From positions 3,720,001-3,784,000 of the forward strand of contig NZ_LT629787.1 in the NCBI RefSeq assembly GCF_900105655.1: DNA of 64,000 bases, written 5' to 3'. Of the stretch, positions 46,422-55,880 are shown piece by piece. The stretch comes from Halopseudomonas salegens (GTDB lineage Bacteria; Pseudomonadota; Gammaproteobacteria; Pseudomonadales; Pseudomonadaceae). The stretch's first letter is position 1. Each line of letters opens with the position of its first letter. A program made the translations under genes and the position numbers. A model generated the notes under the pieces. That model had not been told where the DNA came from. It worked only from the letters and a program-made list of their open reading frames with translations, and did no database searches.

Positions 46422-46447
46422 GACCTGCGCTGATTGGCGGTAACAAG

Positions 46448-46472
46448 AACCCGGCCTATGGCCGGGTTTTTT
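46448..46472 (+). terminator. Intrinsic terminator after pnp
   Basis: AACCCGGCC / GGCCGGGTT with a 3-base loop followed by a T run ends the translation/RNA-decay superoperon. Confidence 0.92.
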
Positions 46473-46565
46473 GTGTCTGCTCAACCGCTTGCGGTGGTGT
46501 ACTTTGCTTTAAAGCGTCAGCCGCGTTTAAATGAGGTACATTTTCCGAATCAGGGTCGAGTCCTT

Positions 46566-46991
46566 ATGCTCTGGTTGTTAACGTTGCATATTGCCGCCTT
46601 GCTGATCTGGGCTGCCGGACTTGTCTATCTGCCTTTGCTGATTGCCGGTACGCGAAGGGACAGTCTGGATCTGGGTGGCGCGCCCACCAACGCCGACTCC
46701 ATTGCCCGCTGGTTGTTCACCCGCATGGCCAGTCCGGCAGCTGCAGTGGCCATTGTCGCTGGTAGCGCTGTATTCCTGATCAACGGCACCACTGATCTCT
46801 GGCTGATGGCCAAGTTGTCCCTGGTTACCCTGCTGGTCGTGGCGCATGCATTGGGTGGCTTCTTGGTGATTCGTCTGGAAGCGGGTAAATCAGTGGTGTC
46901 TGCCAGTTACACCTTGCTTGCCAGCGTGCTCTTGCTGTTGGCAGCCATTCTCTGGCTGGTACTGGCCAAACCGGTATGGGGGTGGAGCTGA
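46566..46991 (+). CDS. CopD/HemJ-like membrane protein
   Basis: A 141-residue protein with four membrane segments. The N-terminal LHIAALLIWAAGLVYLPLL resembles the LH...W.AGL.YLP motif of the CopD/HemJ group. The start at 46566 removes 44 non-conserved residues read through the pnp terminator region. It heads an oxidase gene cluster, so a role in heme or copper supply to the oxidase is plausible but inferred from context. Confidence 0.8.
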   Translation: MLWLLTLHIAALLIWAAGLVYLPLLIAGTRRDSLDLGGAPTNADSIARWLFTRMASPAAAVAIVAGSAVFLINGTTDLWLMAKLSLVTLLVVAHALGGFLVIRLEAGKSVVSASYTLLASVLLLLAAILWLVLAKPVWGWS

Positions 46992-47002: not shown

Positions 47003-47482
47003 TCAGGGCCGGGTGTCGCGATTCTGCGCCCCGTCAATATCAACGCCAACGGCATATTCATACACCAGTTGGCCGCCAAGATAACCCGTTACCGCGATCA
47101 GCAGCCCACTGAGCAGGCTCAGATAAAGGCCCCAGGGAAAGATGCTGTCGCTCACATGCTGCAATCGCAGCGACCAGTTCAGACTGGCCAGCGACAGCAG
47201 CATGATCGCCAGCAAGCCATGACTCCAGCCGCTTACCAGGCGACGAATACGGCGCACAGCGAGCAAATCCAGCATGCCGACCAGCCCGGCCAGGCACCCC
47301 CCGATGGCACCCACACCAGCGAGCCACAGACTGGCTCGTGCCCAGAAAACATCGGCAGTCCAGAGAAATGCCAGATCGCTGCCAATCAGCCCGATCAAGG
47401 CGGCAACCGGGAAATGCACCAGGGCCGGATGCAAGGGGTGACCACGAATGGCCATGCGGCTGGGGATCTGCGTTGTGGGCAT
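47003..47482 (-). CDS. DUF2231-like membrane protein
   Basis: A 159-residue protein with four membrane segments and the IRGHPLHPALVHFPVAALIG motif typical of DUF2231, which often neighbours cytochrome oxidase genes. The start at 47482 (MPTTQIPSR) suits the family; the alternative ATG at 47533, with a better AAGG site, would add 17 residues and overlap the coxB coding start. It is on the opposite strand to the rest of the cluster. Confidence 0.78.
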   Translation of the reverse strand: MPTTQIPSRMAIRGHPLHPALVHFPVAALIGLIGSDLAFLWTADVFWARASLWLAGVGAIGGCLAGLVGMLDLLAVRRIRRLVSGWSHGLLAIMLLSLASLNWSLRLQHVSDSIFPWGLYLSLLSGLLIAVTGYLGGQLVYEYAVGVDIDGAQNRDTRP

Positions 47483-47506
47483 GGGCTGTCTCGTCTGCGC
47501 ACTGTG

Positions 47507-48241
47507 ATGGTTGGAGTCGGCAAAGACCGGCATCGATTGCCTTCAAGGTTAACAGCCTGCACGGTTTTGGCCAGCTCTGTGCTGCTGGCAGGTTGCAGCG
47601 GTCCCTTGTCGACTCTGGATCCGGCGGGCCCGGCAGCGGCTTCGGCAACCCATATATGGTGGGGCATGTTTACCGTGGCCAGTGTCGTGCTCCTGGTGCT
47701 CTGCAGTCTCTGGTGGTATGCCATGCGTCGTTCGCCCAGTGAATTGTCGCCGACGCGGCAGGCACAACTGGAGCGCCGTTGGATTGTCGGCGGTGGCCTG
47801 ATGCTGCCAATGGCCTGTATCGGTGTCTTGCTGCTCTTCGGCATACCGGCCGGGCAGCGCATGTTGCCCTTGCCGGTCGATAGCAGGGAGCCGCTGGTGA
47901 TCGAGGTCACCGGGCATATGTGGTGGTGGCAGGTTGAATACCCCGAGCAGGGCATCGGGTTGCAGAATGTGTTGCATATTCCGGTCGATCACCCGGTGGA
48001 TATCCATTTGCGCAGCGCTGATGTGATCCACGCTTTCTGGGTGCCGCGTCTGGCCGGCAAGCTGGATGCCATTCCCGGGCGCACGAATGTGCTGCGTCTG
48101 CAGGCCAGCCAGAGCGGTGAGTTTCATGGCCAGTGTGCCGAATTCTGCGGGGCTGGCCACAGCCATATGCATTTCCGGGTAATCGCCCATGAGGCAAACA
48201 GCTTCGGGGACTGGATCAAGGAGCAAGGTAGCGATGAGTGA
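47507..48241 (+). CDS. coxB: Cytochrome c oxidase subunit II (CuA), lipoprotein type
   Basis: A 244-residue subunit that receives electrons from cytochrome c. A lipoprotein signal ends in LLAGC (Cys about residue 30), followed by two TMs. The CuA site is complete: DVIHAFWVP supplies a His, and QCAEFCGAGHSHM supplies two Cys, Glu, His and Met. The aromatic GHMWWWQVEYP segment for electron entry is present. No C-terminal heme c motif (CxxCH) is seen, so this is not a caa3-type subunit. The start is uncertain (ATG 47507 or TTG 47537); the stop overlaps the next gene by 8 bases. Confidence 0.92.
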   Translation: MVGVGKDRHRLPSRLTACTVLASSVLLAGCSGPLSTLDPAGPAAASATHIWWGMFTVASVVLLVLCSLWWYAMRRSPSELSPTRQAQLERRWIVGGGLMLPMACIGVLLLFGIPAGQRMLPLPVDSREPLVIEVTGHMWWWQVEYPEQGIGLQNVLHIPVDHPVDIHLRSADVIHAFWVPRLAGKLDAIPGRTNVLRLQASQSGEFHGQCAEFCGAGHSHMHFRVIAHEANSFGDWIKEQGSDE

Positions 48242-50738
48242 ACCCGGCAACACCCGTGCGCATACCATGGCAAAGGTCTGGGCCAATCTGCCGGGCTGGG
48301 GGCAACTGGCGGCGGTCAATCACACCAGTATTGGCCTGCGCTTTATTGCTACCGGCATGTTGTTCTTTCTGGTCGGTGGTGTCTTGGCCATGTTGGTGCG
48401 CTCGCAACTGGCTTTGCCGCAACAGGAACTGATCAGTCCGGAAGCCTACAGCCAGCTGTTTACCATGCATGGCACGGTGATGATGTTCCTGTTTGCCATT
48501 CCGGTGCTGGAAGGCCTGGCGATCTACCTGATCCCCAAGTTTATCGGTGCCCGTGATCTGGTGTTCCCGCGGATCAGCTCGCTGGGCTATTACTGCTATC
48601 TGTTCGGTGGGCTGATTATTCTGTCCAGCCTGTTTTTCGGTGTGGCACCGGATTCCGGCTGGTTCATGTATACCCCGCTGAGCAGTGCCGAGTTTTCCCC
48701 GGGGCCGGGGTCGGATTTCTGGTTGCTGGGGATTACCTTTGTCGAAATATCTGCCATGGCAGCGGGCATCGAGTTGACCGTCTCCATTCTGCGTACCCGC
48801 GCGCCGGGTATGACGCTGAGCAAGATGCCTATCTTCTGCTGGTACATTCTGGCCATGGCGCTGATGATCGTGTTCGGCTTTCCGCCACTGATTCTGGGCA
48901 GCATTCTGCTCGAGCTGGAACGTGCAGGGGGCATGCCGTTTTTCAGTGTCGCCGGGGGCGGCGACCCCTTGCTCTGGCAGCACCTGTTCTGGTTGTTTGG
49001 TCATCCCGAGGTATACATCATCTTTCTGCCGGCGGCGGGCATCGTCTCGACGCTGATTCCGGTGTTTGCCCAGCGCCCGCTGGTGGGGTACCGCTGGGTG
49101 GTGCTGGCGATCCTGCTGACGGGGTTCATCAGTTTCGGACTCTGGGTGCACCATATGTTCACCGTGGGGATTCCCCAACTGGCGCAGCTGTTCTTCTCCC
49201 TGGCCAGTATGCTGGTCGCCATCCCGACGGCGATTCAGGTGTTTGCCTGGCTGGCTACGCTGTGGAGCGGAAAGGTGCGGTTTGAGTTGCCGATGCTGTG
49301 GATATTCGGCTTTCTGGTGATTTTCGTGTGTGGCGGTCTGACCGGCGTCATGCTGGCGCTGGTACCGTTCAACTGGCAGGTGCACGATACCCATTTTGTG
49401 GTTGCCCACCTGCACTATGTGCTGGTCGGCGGCATGTTGTTTCCGCTGCTGGCGGGTCTGTATTACTGGTTGCCACAATTGACCGGTCGCATGCCGAGCA
49501 AGCGCCTGGGCACCTGGGGCTTCTGGCTGATCTTTGGCGGGTTCAATGCCACCTTCCTGTTGATGCACCTGACGGGCTTGTTGGGTATGCCGCGACGGGT
49601 GTACACCTACGAAGCCGGGCTGGGTTGGGACTGGCTCAACCTGTTGTCCTCGATGGGTGGCTTTGTCATGGCCGCGGGCCTGGCGATGGTGCTGCTGGAT
49701 CTGTTGCTGCACAGTCGCTTCGGTCGTCCGGCGGGGCGCAACCCCTGGCAGGCGGATACCCTGGAGTGGGCAACGGATATGCCGCCGACGACGTACAACT
49801 TTGCCAGTATTCCCGAGATCAGCGACCGGCACCCGCTGTGGCGTGATCCAGCCTTGCCGACGCGTATCGCCGATGGTGACTATGGCTTGCCCGATGCCTG
49901 GCATGGCCGGCGTGAAATGGTCGGCACCGATGCCATCAGTGCACGGCTCAAGGAGGTGGTGCACTTGCCGACCAACTCCTGGTGGCCCTTGCTGGCCTCG
50001 CTGGGGCTGGCTCTGGTCTGTATCAGCTTGCTGCTGCGGATCTATCCCCTGGCGCTGGTGGGTTGTGTTCTGGCAGCAATTTTCCTGTTGCGCTGGAGTT
50101 GGGAGAATGGCGTCCAGCGCCATGCTGCGCCGCTGGGTGTGGATGAGCCGGAGCACCCGCCCTTGCATTCGCGTACCCAGGATGGTCCCGGCCGCTGGGG
50201 CATGCTGGTTACCCTGATGGCCGATGCGGCCCTGTATCTGTCACTGCTGTTTGGCTGGTTCTATCTGTGGACGGTAGCGCCCAATTGGCGATTGCCGGAT
50301 CAGCCGGTCTTTGAACTGCTTGGCCTGGTACTCTGCGGGGCTCTGCTGACGGCCGCCTGCTGGCGTTACCAGCATCTGGTTCGGCAGTTGCAACAGGGCA
50401 AGGGTGAGGGCCTGAACTGGGCTGTCATGCAAGTCGCGCTGCTGGGTCTGGCGCATACGCTGGTGCTGATCAAGCTGCTGCTTGATGCTGATCTGCAGCC
50501 ACAAAGCCTGACCCATGACGCGATCATCCTGGTCATGCTCTGCTATCTGTTGTTCCACAGCGGCCTGGCCAGCGTGCTGACCCTGTTGCAAGCCTGGCGG
50601 GTGCGCCTGGGTTATGTCAGTGCGCAATTGCCCTACGAAACCCTGGTACTGCGGCCTTTCTGGCAGTACAGCCTGACGGTGTACTGGGTCAGTGTAGTGG
50701 CCTTTGTGCTATTGCCAACCTGGTGGGGTGCGGCCTGA
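48234..50738 (+). CDS. coxA: Cytochrome c oxidase subunit I fused to subunit III
   Basis: An 834-residue fusion. The N-terminal 560 residues are subunit I: low-spin heme His in TMHG, the Cu-B/Tyr site GHPEVY (His257, Glu259, Tyr261), WVHHMFTVG (His306, His307), and HDTHFVVAHLHYV for the two heme ligands. A linker leads to a subunit III-like membrane domain (about 640-834, GRWGMLVTLMADAALYLSLLFG). All metal ligands and the cross-linked Tyr are kept. The K-channel lysine (PTGIKVF in usual enzymes) is Gln335 in PTAIQVF, and the D-channel FPRLNN is FPRISS (Ser115, Ser116). Start ATG 48234 follows AAGGAG. Confidence 0.94.
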   Translation: MSEPGNTRAHTMAKVWANLPGWGQLAAVNHTSIGLRFIATGMLFFLVGGVLAMLVRSQLALPQQELISPEAYSQLFTMHGTVMMFLFAIPVLEGLAIYLIPKFIGARDLVFPRISSLGYYCYLFGGLIILSSLFFGVAPDSGWFMYTPLSSAEFSPGPGSDFWLLGITFVEISAMAAGIELTVSILRTRAPGMTLSKMPIFCWYILAMALMIVFGFPPLILGSILLELERAGGMPFFSVAGGGDPLLWQHLFWLFGHPEVYIIFLPAAGIVSTLIPVFAQRPLVGYRWVVLAILLTGFISFGLWVHHMFTVGIPQLAQLFFSLASMLVAIPTAIQVFAWLATLWSGKVRFELPMLWIFGFLVIFVCGGLTGVMLALVPFNWQVHDTHFVVAHLHYVLVGGMLFPLLAGLYYWLPQLTGRMPSKRLGTWGFWLIFGGFNATFLLMHLTGLLGMPRRVYTYEAGLGWDWLNLLSSMGGFVMAAGLAMVLLDLLLHSRFGRPAGRNPWQADTLEWATDMPPTTYNFASIPEISDRHPLWRDPALPTRIADGDYGLPDAWHGRREMVGTDAISARLKEVVHLPTNSWWPLLASLGLALVCISLLLRIYPLALVGCVLAAIFLLRWSWENGVQRHAAPLGVDEPEHPPLHSRTQDGPGRWGMLVTLMADAALYLSLLFGWFYLWTVAPNWRLPDQPVFELLGLVLCGALLTAACWRYQHLVRQLQQGKGEGLNWAVMQVALLGLAHTLVLIKLLLDADLQPQSLTHDAIILVMLCYLLFHSGLASVLTLLQAWRVRLGYVSAQLPYETLVLRPFWQYSLTVYWVSVVAFVLLPTWWGAA

Positions 50739-51097
50739 TGCGTGCTGCTCTGCTGGCGCTCTGGCGTCCTGATCATCCGGCGCATGCACTGGTCGGCTTG
50801 TTGCTCTGGTGTCTGTGGTTTGTGCTGCTGTATGCCGGCCTGTCACTGGGTTGTGCCGGGTTGCCGGAAGCCGGAACATGGGCATCGCCCTGGAATGCGA
50901 TCAATCTCGGGCTGGGACTCATGACCTTGCTGTTTCTGGCACTCTATGCCCTGCTGGTCTGGCGTAGCTGGCGTGCTCTGCAGGGCAAACCGCAAGCGCA
51001 GTTCATCGTCTGGTTAGGCTTGCTGGTCAACCTGTTGTCAGCCGCAGCCACTCTGTTTGTGGTCTTGCCCATAGTTTATCTGCCGCCATGTATCTGA
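50738..51097 (+). CDS. Small membrane protein of the oxidase cluster
   Basis: A 119-residue protein with three membrane segments (for example GLLLWCLWFVLLYAGLSLGC and FIVWLGLLVNLLSAAATLFVV). I do not recognise a family. Its ATG overlaps the coxA stop (TGATG) and its 3' end overlaps ctaG, so it belongs to the oxidase operon and may be an accessory subunit or assembly protein. Confidence 0.75.
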   Translation: MRAALLALWRPDHPAHALVGLLLWCLWFVLLYAGLSLGCAGLPEAGTWASPWNAINLGLGLMTLLFLALYALLVWRSWRALQGKPQAQFIVWLGLLVNLLSAAATLFVVLPIVYLPPCI

Positions 51098-51894
51098 TGC
51101 CTGTCTTGTTCGCTGCGCTTTTACTGTCGATCAGTCCGCACGCGACGGCGCACAGCCTGTTTGACAGCCAGGGTCCGGAACAATGGTCAGCCGGGCTTAC
51201 GGCACTGTTGCTCGGCGTATTCTGGGTCCTGTACTGGCAGGGCAGTCGACGACGGTCACCCGGGCGCTGGTCCAGCCTCGTCTTCTATCTGACCTTGTTG
51301 CTGGCGATTCTGAGCCTGCTGGGCCCACTGGATGACTGGGCCAAGACCAGCACTGCGGCGCACATGACCCAGCATATGTTGCTGATGGTGGTGATCGCGC
51401 CGCTGTGGGTGTTATGCCGGCCTTTGCCACAACTGGCCGCCGGCTGGGGGCGGCATTTGCGTGGCCTCTGGCAGCCAGCCCTGCGGATGGCCAGGCATCC
51501 GCTGTATATGGCTTATCTGCACGGATTCTTTATCTGGTTCTGGCATGTGCCGCGCTTCTACATGCTGGCGGTCGAGGATCCCTGGTGGCACCTGATCGAG
51601 CACCTGTGTTTTCTGCTCTCGGCCGGGTTGTTCTGGTGGGCAATCCTGCGTGCCAGTGCGCGCAACCTGCCGTTGGCCCTGCTGGCGTTGTTGTTTACCC
51701 TGATGCATACCGGTTTTCTCGGCGCCCTGCTGACCTTTGCCAGCAGCCCGCTGTACGGCGAGGCGCGTAGCCTGCAGGACCAGCAACTGGCTGGCCTGAT
51801 CATGTGGGTAGCGGCGGCGATTCCCTATCTGATGGCTGCGGCCTGGCTGGCGCGGCGCTGGTACCGGCAACTGCTGGCGCAAGGGCGACTCTAG
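51088..51894 (+). CDS. ctaG: Cytochrome c oxidase assembly protein, CtaG (caa3) type
   Basis: A 268-residue polytopic protein of the Bacillus-type CtaG family, involved in oxidase assembly, presumably Cu-B insertion. His-rich membrane motifs are visible: AAHMTQHMLLMVVIAPL, FFIWFWHVPRFY and WHLIEHLCFLLSAG. No Cox11-type gene is seen in the cluster. It overlaps the preceding gene by 10 bases; the ATG at 51097 is an alternative start. Confidence 0.88.
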   Translation: MYLMPVLFAALLLSISPHATAHSLFDSQGPEQWSAGLTALLLGVFWVLYWQGSRRRSPGRWSSLVFYLTLLLAILSLLGPLDDWAKTSTAAHMTQHMLLMVVIAPLWVLCRPLPQLAAGWGRHLRGLWQPALRMARHPLYMAYLHGFFIWFWHVPRFYMLAVEDPWWHLIEHLCFLLSAGLFWWAILRASARNLPLALLALLFTLMHTGFLGALLTFASSPLYGEARSLQDQQLAGLIMWVAAAIPYLMAAAWLARRWYRQLLAQGRL

Positions 51895-52017: not shown

Positions 52018-52350
52018 ATGCAAATGATCCTGCTGTTGGTTGCACTGATTCTGTTTCTGGTGGTGCCGGTGATGATCGCCGCGCGCCTGGTCAAGGCGGA
52101 GAAAACCGGTTTTATGCCGGCGCTGGTGGCGGTCGTCTTGTTGACCGGGCTGTTTGCCGGGCTGGAAATGCTTGCGCTCAGTGAGTGGGTAACCATGCTG
52201 TTATCGGCACTGATTGGCGCCGGGGTTTTTGCCTTTGCTCTGGGTACCAGTATTTTGCGTGGCTTTTTGATCAGCGTCATTGTGGTGTTGTTGCAGGCAG
52301 CGCTGCTCTATCTGTTGCTGGGTGTCTGGCTGGGTGATGGTGCACTATGA
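52018..52350 (+). CDS. Small integral membrane protein coupled to the hemoglobin gene
   Basis: A 110-residue, almost wholly hydrophobic protein with four membrane segments (ILLLVALILFLVVPVMIAA first). The start at 52018 follows GGGGAGG; the longer frame is not supported. Family unknown. It ends in an ATGA overlap with the truncated hemoglobin gene, so the two are probably translated together. Confidence 0.75.
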   Translation: MQMILLLVALILFLVVPVMIAARLVKAEKTGFMPALVAVVLLTGLFAGLEMLALSEWVTMLLSALIGAGVFAFALGTSILRGFLISVIVVLLQAALLYLLLGVWLGDGAL

Positions 52351-52775
52351 CCGACAAACCCGGATATGGCGAGGCGGATGCCTCCTATCAGGCAGCCGGC
52401 GGCATTGAGGGTATTCGGCGGCTGGTGGATGACTTCTATCAGGTGATGGATACCTGGCCGGATGCAGAACGTATTCGCCGCATGCACCCGGCCGACCTGA
52501 GCCCGGCGCGCGACAAACTGAGCTGTTTTCTGTCCGGTTGGCTGGGTGGCCCAAGGTTGTTTCAGGAGACGTACGGCAGTATCAGTATTCCCGCCTTTCA
52601 TGCCCGCTGGCCAATCGATACGGCAGATGCCGAAGCCTGGCTGGGGTGCATGCAGCAGGCGATTGCGCGACAGCCATGGTCTCCGGCATTCAAGGACTAC
52701 CTGTTGCGACAGCTGGCTGTCCCCGCTCAGCGGGTAGTGCAGGCCGCCCAGGCACGTCAGGCGGCGCAGCAGTAA
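52347..52775 (+). CDS. Group II truncated hemoglobin
   Basis: A 142-residue globin of the 2-over-2 group II (YjbI/GlbO) type. Tyr31 in DDFYQVM fits B10, His85 in PAFHARWPID fits the proximal F8 His, and Trp98 in AWLGCMQ fits the group II G8 Trp. The usual YGHP-L-R-RH segment reads YGSISIPAFH, so the FG region is divergent. Such globins bind O2 or NO. The gene is coupled to a membrane protein and sits just downstream of a terminal oxidase operon, which would fit O2/NO handling at the membrane. It converges on the protease gene with a 9-base gap. Confidence 0.88.
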   Translation: MTDKPGYGEADASYQAAGGIEGIRRLVDDFYQVMDTWPDAERIRRMHPADLSPARDKLSCFLSGWLGGPRLFQETYGSISIPAFHARWPIDTADAEAWLGCMQQAIARQPWSPAFKDYLLRQLAVPAQRVVQAAQARQAAQQ

Positions 52776-55214: not shown

Positions 55215-55880
55215 TCAGTCACTGGCTTCCTGCGGGCGATCGAAACGATCGGCAAAGTCATGATTGACATCACGGTGCTCGGCTTCGTCGGCGCGCACTG
55301 CAATGACCACTTCACGCAGCCGGGCATCGGCAGGAAGCTGCCAATAATCGATGGCGATCCGGGGTGCCGGTACGTTTTCCAGTTTGCCGTTGTCTATTTC
55401 GGCCAGGTACTGGGTATAGCTGTAGACGGCCTCTTCTTCGAAGTAGCCGACCAGGCGGTGGGCGGTGCGTCCGGAAATGACATAGAGCAGGAAAAAACAG
55501 GTAAAGAAAATGCCCTGGGCGAGCAGGATGACCATGCGCTCGAACCAGTTCGGTCGAGCGATTTCCACGAACGTCATCAGGTGCATACGCTCGTTTTCCG
55601 CTTCCGCCAGCAGGGTATGAATCCAGTCGCGGTCATCCTCCAGCCGACGCAGGCTGCGCATGTGGCGAATCATGCCACCGACCATGCCGGGTACCCCGGC
55701 TACGGTTTCCAGCACCACGGCGCGATGACCGTAGCGTTGGGCAAAAAACAGGTCGGCAAAAAAACGCAGCAAGCGGGTGAGCCGAAAGGCAATCTGATCG
55801 GAGAGCCCTTTTGGCGCCCGGTGCTTTGCCAGTGGATCTTCACAGGCGATGGTACTGTTGTCAGGTTGCTGTTGGCTCAT
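55215..55880 (-). CDS. Alternative oxidase (ubiquinol oxidase, di-iron)
   Basis: A 221-residue AOX that oxidises ubiquinol and reduces O2 to water without pumping protons. The di-iron ligands are all in place: Glu58 in [10 protein letters not shown], Glu97 and His100 in NERMHL, a Glu in [10 protein letters not shown] (148-150), and Glu199/His202 in [12 protein letters not shown]. Hydrophobic stretches ([20 protein letters not shown]) fit monotopic membrane binding. The ATG overlaps the BCCT transporter stop (ATGA), so translation is probably coupled. Uncommon in pseudomonads as far as I recall, hence possible horizontal gain. Confidence 0.95.

What the first reader, a model, noticed from the sequence alone, without database searches (positions are those of the whole stretch)
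48234..50738. Oxidase subunit I with Gln at the K-channel lysine and no D-channel asparagines
All heme and Cu-B ligands and the cross-linked Tyr261 are present. The spacing from His257 to residue 335 (78) equals His284 to Lys362 in Rhodobacter sphaeroides, and residue 335 is Gln (PTAIQVF, codon CAG). The D-channel positions matching Asn139/Asn140 are Ser115/Ser116 and the Asn121 position is Ile97, while the entry Asp (108) and the Glu of GHPEVY remain. With a fused subunit III, this suggests altered proton uptake or pumping in a still-functional O2 reductase.
Basis: partly seen in the sequence, partly recalled or inferred. Interest (0 to 1): 0.72.

Follow-up and report, generated by a model that had tools for sequence, protein, structure and literature searches.

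The report
Cytochrome oxidase with rebuilt proton channels
A group of proteobacteria carries a second oxygen-consuming respiratory enzyme in which the usual proton-carrying lysine is almost always replaced by glutamine and conserved acidic residues appear in or beside the other proton path, so it is a natural test of how proton pumping works.

Summary
Window 48234-50738 encodes an 834-aa COX1-COX3 fusion with all haem and CuB ligands, Tyr261, the Glu of GHPEVY and Asp108, but Gln335 at Rhodobacter sphaeroides (Rs) Lys362, Ser/Ser at Asn139/140 and Ile at Asn121. It is a clade trait: among 361 proteins (window protein plus 360 relatives, three branches) position 362 is Gln in 360. Ser/Asn365 mostly becomes Ala/Val/Cys. 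Q and K types form two sides of one branch (100/99). All 19 genomes that had the Gln motif and were scanned for both also have a Lys motif, so it looks accessory. I read it as an A-type cytochrome c oxidase with rebuilt proton uptake, probably with lowered pumping (Asn207Asp and Asn139Asp uncouple the Rs enzyme). No structure or biochemistry could be run. COX1-3 fusions and coxMNOP are known kinds; I saw no description of this channel change in the listings and passages I read.

The parts
48234..50738 (+). Fused cytochrome c oxidase subunit I + diverged subunit III (COX1-3), 834 aa, 18 hydrophobic segments by simple hydropathy (12 in COX1, one in the linker, 5 in the COX3 part)
49236..49238 (+). 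Gln335 (CAG) at Rs Lys362 (K-channel)
   Evidence: Gln in 360 of 361 proteins
49245..49247 (+). Ala338 at Rs Ser365 (lower K-channel); Ala/Val/Cys in 359 of 361 proteins
48771..48773 (+). Glu180 at Rs Asn207 (D-channel neck)
   Evidence: Glu in 346 of 361
48744..48746 (+). Glu171 at Rs Gly198 (three residues before a listed D-channel serine on the same hydrophobic segment)
   Evidence: Glu in 361 of 361
48510..48512 (+). Glu93, four residues before the Asn121 position (Rs 116/117)
   Evidence: Glu in 348 of 361
48522..48524 (+). Ile97 at Rs Asn121
48576..48581 (+). Ser115-Ser116 at Rs Asn139-Asn140
48555..48557 (+). Asp108, D-channel entry (Rs Asp132), kept
49002..49016 (+). His257-Pro-Glu259-Val-Tyr261: CuB ligand, Glu286 equivalent, cross-linking Tyr
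47537..48241 (+). Subunit II (COX2) with CuA motif CAEFCGAGHSHM at 48134-48169 and a lipobox-like LLAGC; start codon uncertain (candidates 47504-47579); no C-terminal cytochrome c motif here
47003..47533 (-). DUF2231 membrane protein, opposite strand; a relative is found in 77 of 80 loci
46434..46991 (+). HemJ-like (UPF0093) membrane protein, diverged second copy; a relative is found in 78 of 80 loci
50723..51097 (+). Small hydrophobic 124-aa protein; a relative is found in 79 of 80 loci
51088..51894 (+). Caa3_CtaG, putative copper assembly factor; a relative is found in 46 of 80 loci

Best explanation
This is the catalytic subunit of a second, accessory A-type cytochrome c oxidase, one member of a proteobacterial clade. 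Electrons enter from cytochrome c through CuA in subunit II, and O2 is reduced at an ordinary haem a3/CuB/Tyr centre (inferred from complete ligands). The lower K-channel in subunit I is dismantled: Lys362 to Gln and Ser/Asn365 to Ala/Val/Cys (shown by alignment); its entry acid in subunit II is not conserved at its column (shown, but the alignment is gappy there and acids lie nearby). The upper part (Tyr288, Ser299, Thr359) is kept in the fused gamma branch; Ser299 is Ala in the L111-like fused branch, and Thr359 is mostly Ser or Asn in the CoxN-like branch. The D side keeps the Glu286 equivalent (Asp in 9 of 361) and, in the fused branches, Asp132, but in the fused branches replaces Asn121, Asn139 and Asn207 and, in all branches, adds conserved glutamates at 198, about 117 and (mostly) 207. 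The most likely consequence (inferred) is that most protons reach the active site by this rebuilt acid-rich path, perhaps helped by a water/Gln/Thr chain, and that fewer than one proton is pumped per electron.
For: Gln at 362 in 360/361 proteins; Glu at 198 in 361/361, at 207 in 346/361, at about 117 in 348/361; the 25 canonical proteins have Lys, Gly, Asn and Gly/Val/Thr. Loci picked only by the Gln DNA motif: 18 of 19 non-window oxidase loci carry Gln362 and the three Glu in one frame; in the 19th, L090, they lie on two separate frame pieces. Six of the 19 (L084-L088, L106) were already in alignment A1 and L094 is the gene of L109, so 12 are fresh (11 in one frame). One further motif hit, L107, is not an oxidase. 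Known channel residues are modestly over-represented among diverged positions: 6 of 33 against 2.3 expected, P 0.02, and 0.01-0.04 over five cut-offs, uncorrected. Asn139Asp and Asn207Asp uncouple pumping in Rs; Asn139Asp slightly raises activity (PMC6934443, passages). All 19 genomes with the Gln motif that were scanned for both also carry the Lys motif. The window's genome has a canonical Lys-type aa3 subunit I and a third, cbb3-like one (cbb3 by eye).
Against: No structure or activity data. Glu is not Asp, and the Rs mutants are single changes in a different background; PMC6934443 says the equivalent mammalian mutants pump normally. The CoxN-like branch keeps Asn139 (119/120), loses Asp132 (Asn in 119/120), and 15 of 120 lack Glu207, so only Glu198 is universal. 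Position 198 is not in the published D-channel residue list. Subunit II: Asp at the entry column in 16 of 20 canonical proteins; in 84 Gln-type proteins the four commonest states are Leu 36, gap 19, Val 11, Pro 6 (12 not shown), but acids are common a few columns on (Glu 38 and Asp 13 of 84 at one of them). The enrichment test is weak. The Lys motif does not separate aa3 from bo3 oxidases.
Confidence: 0.52

Rival explanations
1. Fully coupled pump with a Lys-free K-path: Gln335, Thr332, Ser272 and water conduct protons to Tyr261, as Lys-free paths do in B-type enzymes, and the acid-rich D path still pumps one proton per electron.
For: Thr359 and Ser299 equivalents are kept in the fused gamma branch (Thr 120/121, Ser 120/121). 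B-type oxidases take up all protons by one path overlapping the K path (PMC6934443, passage). Mammalian equivalents of the decoupling mutants pump normally (same paper). Acids near the K entry of subunit II remain in many relatives.
Against: Positions 362 and 365 are lost together in nearly all members. Ser299 is Ala in 120/120 L111-like proteins, and Thr359 varies in CoxN-like ones (Ser 74, Asn 36, Thr 8, Ala 2 of 120).
Confidence: 0.32
2. Channel drift without functional meaning: an old, long-branched oxidase whose channel letters changed neutrally.
For: Long branch between the Q and K sides; 33 of 451 positions meet the same divergence cut-off, most of them outside the channels.
Against: Near-invariance of Gln362, Glu198, Glu207 and Glu117 over three branches down to 44% identity to the window protein, while positions 121, 139 and 140 vary within the clade.
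Confidence: 0.1
3. It reduces something other than O2, for example NO.
For: Unusual proton paths only.
Against: Tyr288 and all CuB/haem ligands in 361/361; CuA motif in subunit II; CtaG and haem A synthase present.
Confidence: 0.03
4. The rebuilt path moves Na+ rather than, or besides, H+, an adaptation to salt or alkali.
For: Several listed hosts are halophiles or alkaliphiles by name (Halomonas, Thioalkalivibrio, Alkalimonas, Marinimicrobium alkaliphilum); buried carboxylates could hold a cation.
Against: The clade is also found in Pseudomonas, Stutzerimonas, Mesorhizobium and Skermanella. No enrichment was tested. The Ca/Na-site positions (recalled: Rs Glu54, Asp485) are Gln and Thr here.
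Confidence: 0.02

Closest known systems
Proteobacterial COX1-3 fusion proteins of 'COX operon type a' (PMC4013037 and PMC8239418; passages read)
   Same: Fused COX1+COX3 in proteobacteria; PMC8239418 notes their long branches
   Different: Matched here by architecture only; no sequence from these papers was compared. The passages I read do not mention Gln at 362 or the Glu residues. PMC8239418 classifies K-channel variants in a supplementary figure that I could not open.
CoxN of coxMNOP (Bradyrhizobium, recalled; ccaa3 oxidase of Pseudomonas pseudoalcaligenes KF707, PMC5492768, passages read)
   Same: Unfused relatives on the same side of the tree: Gln362 120/120, Glu198 120/120, Glu207 105/120; L113/L114 are followed by a separate COX3-like frame
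   Different: Asp132 is Asn in 119/120 and Asn139 is kept. The label coxMNOP rests on this architecture; no published CoxN sequence was compared, and the L113/L114 subunit II shows one CxxCH motif where KF707 CoxM has two.
Canonical aa3/caa3 oxidase (Rs, Paracoccus; own paralogue L001)
   Same: Fold, redox centres, Glu286, Asp132
   Different: Lys362, Asn121/139/207, Gly198, Ser/Asn365
Thermus thermophilus caa3 (PDB 2yev), fused I+III
   Same: Fusion architecture; aligns over query residues 11-744
   Different: Its residues at 117/198/207/362 were not examined here
Archaeal family A oxidases that lost the K-channel (PMC8239418, passage)
   Same: K-channel loss inside family A; the paper counts seven losses under one hypothesis
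   Different: Archaeal; the replacing residues were not seen by me

Membership tests
CtaD/CoxA cytochrome c oxidase subunit I (TIGR02891) | Score above curated cut-off | tested here: met
   721.1 against 670.75 bits
Heme-copper O2 reductase | Six His ligands and cross-linking Tyr | tested here: met
   All present in the window protein and in 361/361 proteins of the set
A1-type proton-channel signature | GHPEVY Glu (Rs Glu286) and D-entry Asp132 | tested here: met
   Glu259 and Asp108 in the window protein; in the clade Glu286 in 352/361 (9 Asp); Asp132 in 239/361, with 2 Glu, 119 Asn and 1 Ser
A1-type proton-channel signature | Lys362 of the K-channel | tested here: not met
   Gln335; Gln in 360/361
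A1-type proton-channel signature | Asn at 121, 139 and 207 | tested here: not met
   Ile97, Ser115, Glu180
Cytochrome c (not quinol) oxidase | CuA ligands in subunit II | tested here: met
   CAEFCGAGHSHM at 48134-48169
COX1-3 fusion | C-terminal COX3 domain | tested here: met
   Diverged: profile E 2.5e-6, probability 88.7; Pfam COX3 in 1 of 45 members; no PDB hit by single sequence
B-type (SoxB) or C-type (cbb3) | Score above NCBIfam cut-off | tested here: not met
   SoxB 98.4 of 700 bits; ccoN 33.9 of 583 bits
Non-pumping oxidase | Measured pumping near zero | not testable with these tools
   Needs reconstituted enzyme

The most novel reading that the evidence does not exclude
A further natural proton-path design for heme-copper oxidases, beside D+K (A type) and the single K-like path (B type): the Lys-based K path is gone and all protons travel along a new carboxylate-lined path (Glu117-Glu207-Glu198 towards Glu286) that works even where the D-entry Asp is lost (CoxN-like branch). 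Evolution would thereby have fixed changes of the kind that decouple the pump in the laboratory.
Probability: 0.3. Interest if true: 0.75.

Novelty: new variant of a known kind. Interest (0 to 1): 0.55.

Why it matters
How the K and D channels share proton uptake, and what couples O2 reduction to pumping, has been worked out largely from mutants. A natural enzyme, found in several proteobacterial groups, without the K-channel lysine and with an acid at the position whose Asp mutant uncouples the Rs pump makes both questions testable on wild-type proteins. If pumping is lowered, the presence of an aa3-type oxidase gene in a genome need not mean one pumped proton per electron, which would matter for growth-yield models of the bacteria that carry it.

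Tried and rejected
Sequencing error or misalignment at the CAG codon: rejected. Gln tied to subunit III fusion: rejected, since unfused relatives have it. A viral-contig scan with the family profile gave two loci at 40-42% identity (L138, L139), not followed. Sister group outside Pseudomonadota not found: the genome-contig scan kept the best 80 of 593 relatives, all close. Papers: ten searches; in their listings, and in the passages I opened of ten papers (PMC8239418, PMC4013037, PMC6431628, PMC5492768, PMC9145763, PMC9687966, PMC10341450, PMC4550891, PMC5040959, PMC6934443), I saw no description of this clade's Gln362 or Glu residues. Degli Esposti 2020, Han 2006 and Zhu 2010 are not held, so prior description there cannot be excluded.

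On recheck I weakened the claim that the subunit II entry acid is lost (acids lie nearby and the alignment is gappy), and lowered the best explanation from 0.55 to 0.52 and raised the first rival from 0.30 to 0.32 for that reason.

Rows dropped before counts: L026 and L081 have GHPDVY and were missed (Gln found). Nine loci failed a regular expression; eight were shown to have Gln and the ninth is L107. Eleven of 41 loci failed the motif filter: L110 and L112 are clade loci, L102 is a short fragment, and the other eight (L096, L097, L129-L131, L134, L136, L137) are Lys-type or unchecked and perhaps bo3-like, so quinol oxidases are under-represented among the controls. One search thinned 76 rows to 57. 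In one search, rows with too little sequence before CuA (such as L088 and L106) were left out. The 361-protein set is the best 120 hits of each of three searches plus the window protein, so it is weighted to near relatives; the L111 set is mostly alphaproteobacterial where named but includes gammaproteobacteria.
Full report
What is there. Window 48234-50738 (+) encodes one 834-residue protein that scores above the cut-off for cytochrome c oxidase subunit I, TIGR02891. It continues into a strongly diverged subunit III: profile comparison with canonical COX3 gives E 2.5e-6 and probability 88.7, and one of 45 family members, L106, hits Pfam COX3 at 2.4e-11. A single-sequence PDB search with the C-terminal part found nothing related. 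Upstream lies subunit II with a complete CuA motif; its frame overlaps the start of the fusion gene by 8 nt.

In Rs numbering, from an alignment with the PDB 1m56 chain printed: His102, 284, 333, 334, 419, 421 and Tyr288 are kept; Glu286 and Asp132 are kept; Lys362 is Gln335; Asn139/140 are Ser115/116; Asn121 is Ile97.

It is a clade trait. The set has 361 proteins: the window protein plus its 120 best relatives (GAM), 120 relatives of the fused, mostly alphaproteobacterial L111, and 120 relatives of the unfused CoxN-like L114. Position 362 is Gln in 120/121, 120/120 and 120/120, and the redox ligands and Tyr288 are invariant in all 361. Twenty-five canonical COX1 proteins, the genome's own paralogue included, have Lys in 25/25.

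The same comparison shows three glutamates specific to the clade. Glu at Gly198: 121/121, 120/120, 120/120. Glu at Asn207: 121/121, 120/120, 105/120. Glu four residues before Asn121: 121/121, 120/120, 107/120, the rest being 11 Gln and 2 Asp. The canonical set has Gly, Asn and Gly/Val/Thr. Asn207 is on a published list of D-channel residues (PMC10341450, passage). Position 198 is not on that list; it lies next to listed positions 197, 200 and 201. Positive charges also appear next to the D-channel entry: position 126 is Lys in 43 of 48 clade rows and 0 of 28 controls, and position 131 is Arg in 48 of 48 and 1 of 28.

The K side. Besides Lys362, Ser/Asn365 becomes Ala, Val or Cys in 359 of 361. 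In subunit II the column that holds Asp in 16 of 20 canonical proteins shows Leu 36, gap 19, Val 11 and Pro 6 among 84 Gln-type proteins, with 12 not printed; but acids are common a few columns further (Glu 38 and Asp 13 at one column) and the alignment is gappy there. So the entry acid is shifted or lost, not clearly absent. That this column is the Rs Glu101 position is by counting against a recalled sequence. Near the haem, Tyr288 is invariant; Thr359 and Ser299 are kept in the fused gamma branch; Ser299 is Ala in 120/120 L111-like proteins; and Thr359 is mostly Ser or Asn in the CoxN-like ones.

A further check. Apart from the window, 20 loci came up. One (L107) is a chance match, not an oxidase. 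Of the other 19, 18 carry Gln362, Glu198, Glu207 and Glu117 in one frame; in L090 the gene is broken and the same residues sit on two separate pieces. Six of the 19 were already in alignment A1 and L094 is the gene of L109, so 12 are fresh. L147 (a 647-aa frame, too short for the fusion) also keeps Asp132 and Asn139.

Descent. A maximum-likelihood tree without the trait columns puts Q and K types on two sides of one branch (100/99); the CoxN-like pair splits first on the Q side as drawn, with the root at the midpoint only for drawing. The K side includes B. subtilis aa3-600 and one actinobacterial chain. Thermus and archaeal fusions are not in the tree.

Distribution and role. The Gln motif occurs in 12 of 299 genomes across the phylum, in 5 of 274 in the class, one of them the chance match, and in 13 of 195 in the order (slightly wider pattern). 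The 19 different genomes all have the Lys motif too; the extra genome, G314, was not scanned for it. The background is 157 of 299 (Fisher P 4.6e-4, related genomes not independent) and 153 of 195. The Lys motif does not separate aa3 from bo3 oxidases. The patterns miss some family members (G095, G051 and G071), so the counts are lower bounds. The window's genome has a canonical Lys-type subunit I and a third, cbb3-like one (cbb3 by eye), a haem A synthase and, in the window, an alternative oxidase. In KF707 the coxMNOP promoter showed very low activity (PMC5492768, passages).

Gene neighbourhood. Of 80 named loci, relatives of the neighbours are found as follows: HemJ-like 78, DUF2231 77, subunit II 79, small 124-aa protein 79, CtaG 46 (single-sequence search, so lower bounds; the order was printed for 11 loci, in which DUF2231 is on the reverse strand). 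The HemJ-like protein is a diverged second copy: 52 bits, against 181 for another copy elsewhere in the genome.

Mechanism. Shown: complete catalytic centre, loss of Lys362 and Ser/Asn365, exchange of Asn residues on the D side, gain of conserved glutamates. From the literature: in A-type bacterial oxidases the K path delivers about two protons and the D path the other six; Asn139Asp and Asn207Asp in Rs uncouple pumping, while mammalian equivalents do not (PMC6934443, passages). Inferred: protons mostly use the rebuilt path and pumping is lowered. The CoxN-like branch, with Asn at the D-entry in 119/120, suggests that the essential part is the glutamate set with Glu286 rather than Asp132.

How strong. 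The alignment facts are strong. The enrichment of channel positions among diverged ones is weak (6 of 33 against 2.3; P 0.01-0.04 over five cut-offs, uncorrected). No structure prediction could be run. K-channel loss inside family A is known in archaea (PMC8239418, passage), and COX1-3 fusions and coxMNOP are known, so this is a new variant of a known kind, not a new kind.

Noticed in passing
46434-46991 and 47003-47533: A diverged HemJ-like protein (52 bits; the other copy in the genome scores 181) and a reverse-strand DUF2231 membrane protein accompany this oxidase in 78 and 77 of 80 loci; I know of no established role for either in oxidase assembly.
   Followed up: partly
55215-55880 (-): A bacterial alternative oxidase (Pfam AOX, E 2e-87) lies about 4.5 kb downstream beside a BCCT transporter; no relative was found in the 80 related loci, which reach at most 6 kb past the oxidase gene.
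   Followed up: partly
52347-52775 (+): A truncated-haemoglobin-like protein (PF01152) close to the oxidase cluster; no relative found in the 80 related loci.
   Followed up: partly
48405-48407 and 49605-49607: Rs positions 54 and 485, which I recall as part of the Ca/Na site, are Gln58 and Thr458 here; Gln in 48/48 clade rows and Thr in 40/48, against Glu 27/28 and Asp 27/28 in controls.
   Followed up: partly
L113, L114 (CoxN-like, unfused): The D-channel entry Asp132 is Asn in 119 of 120 CoxN-like proteins while Asn139 is kept in 119.
   Followed up: partly
P0099: Single relative with Leu at position 362, otherwise with the three Glu; may be an error or a further change.
   Followed up: no
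GAM set, Rs position 286: Nine of 121 fused gamma proteins have Asp for the Glu of GHPEVY.
   Followed up: no
L090 / L112 (genome G050): The fusion gene is broken into separate frame pieces in this genome, which has two Lys-motif matches.
   Followed up: no
L031 and others: Subunit II carries a C-terminal CxxCH motif in 46 of the 80 named loci but not in the window, so caa3- and aa3-like forms mix within the clade.
   Followed up: partly
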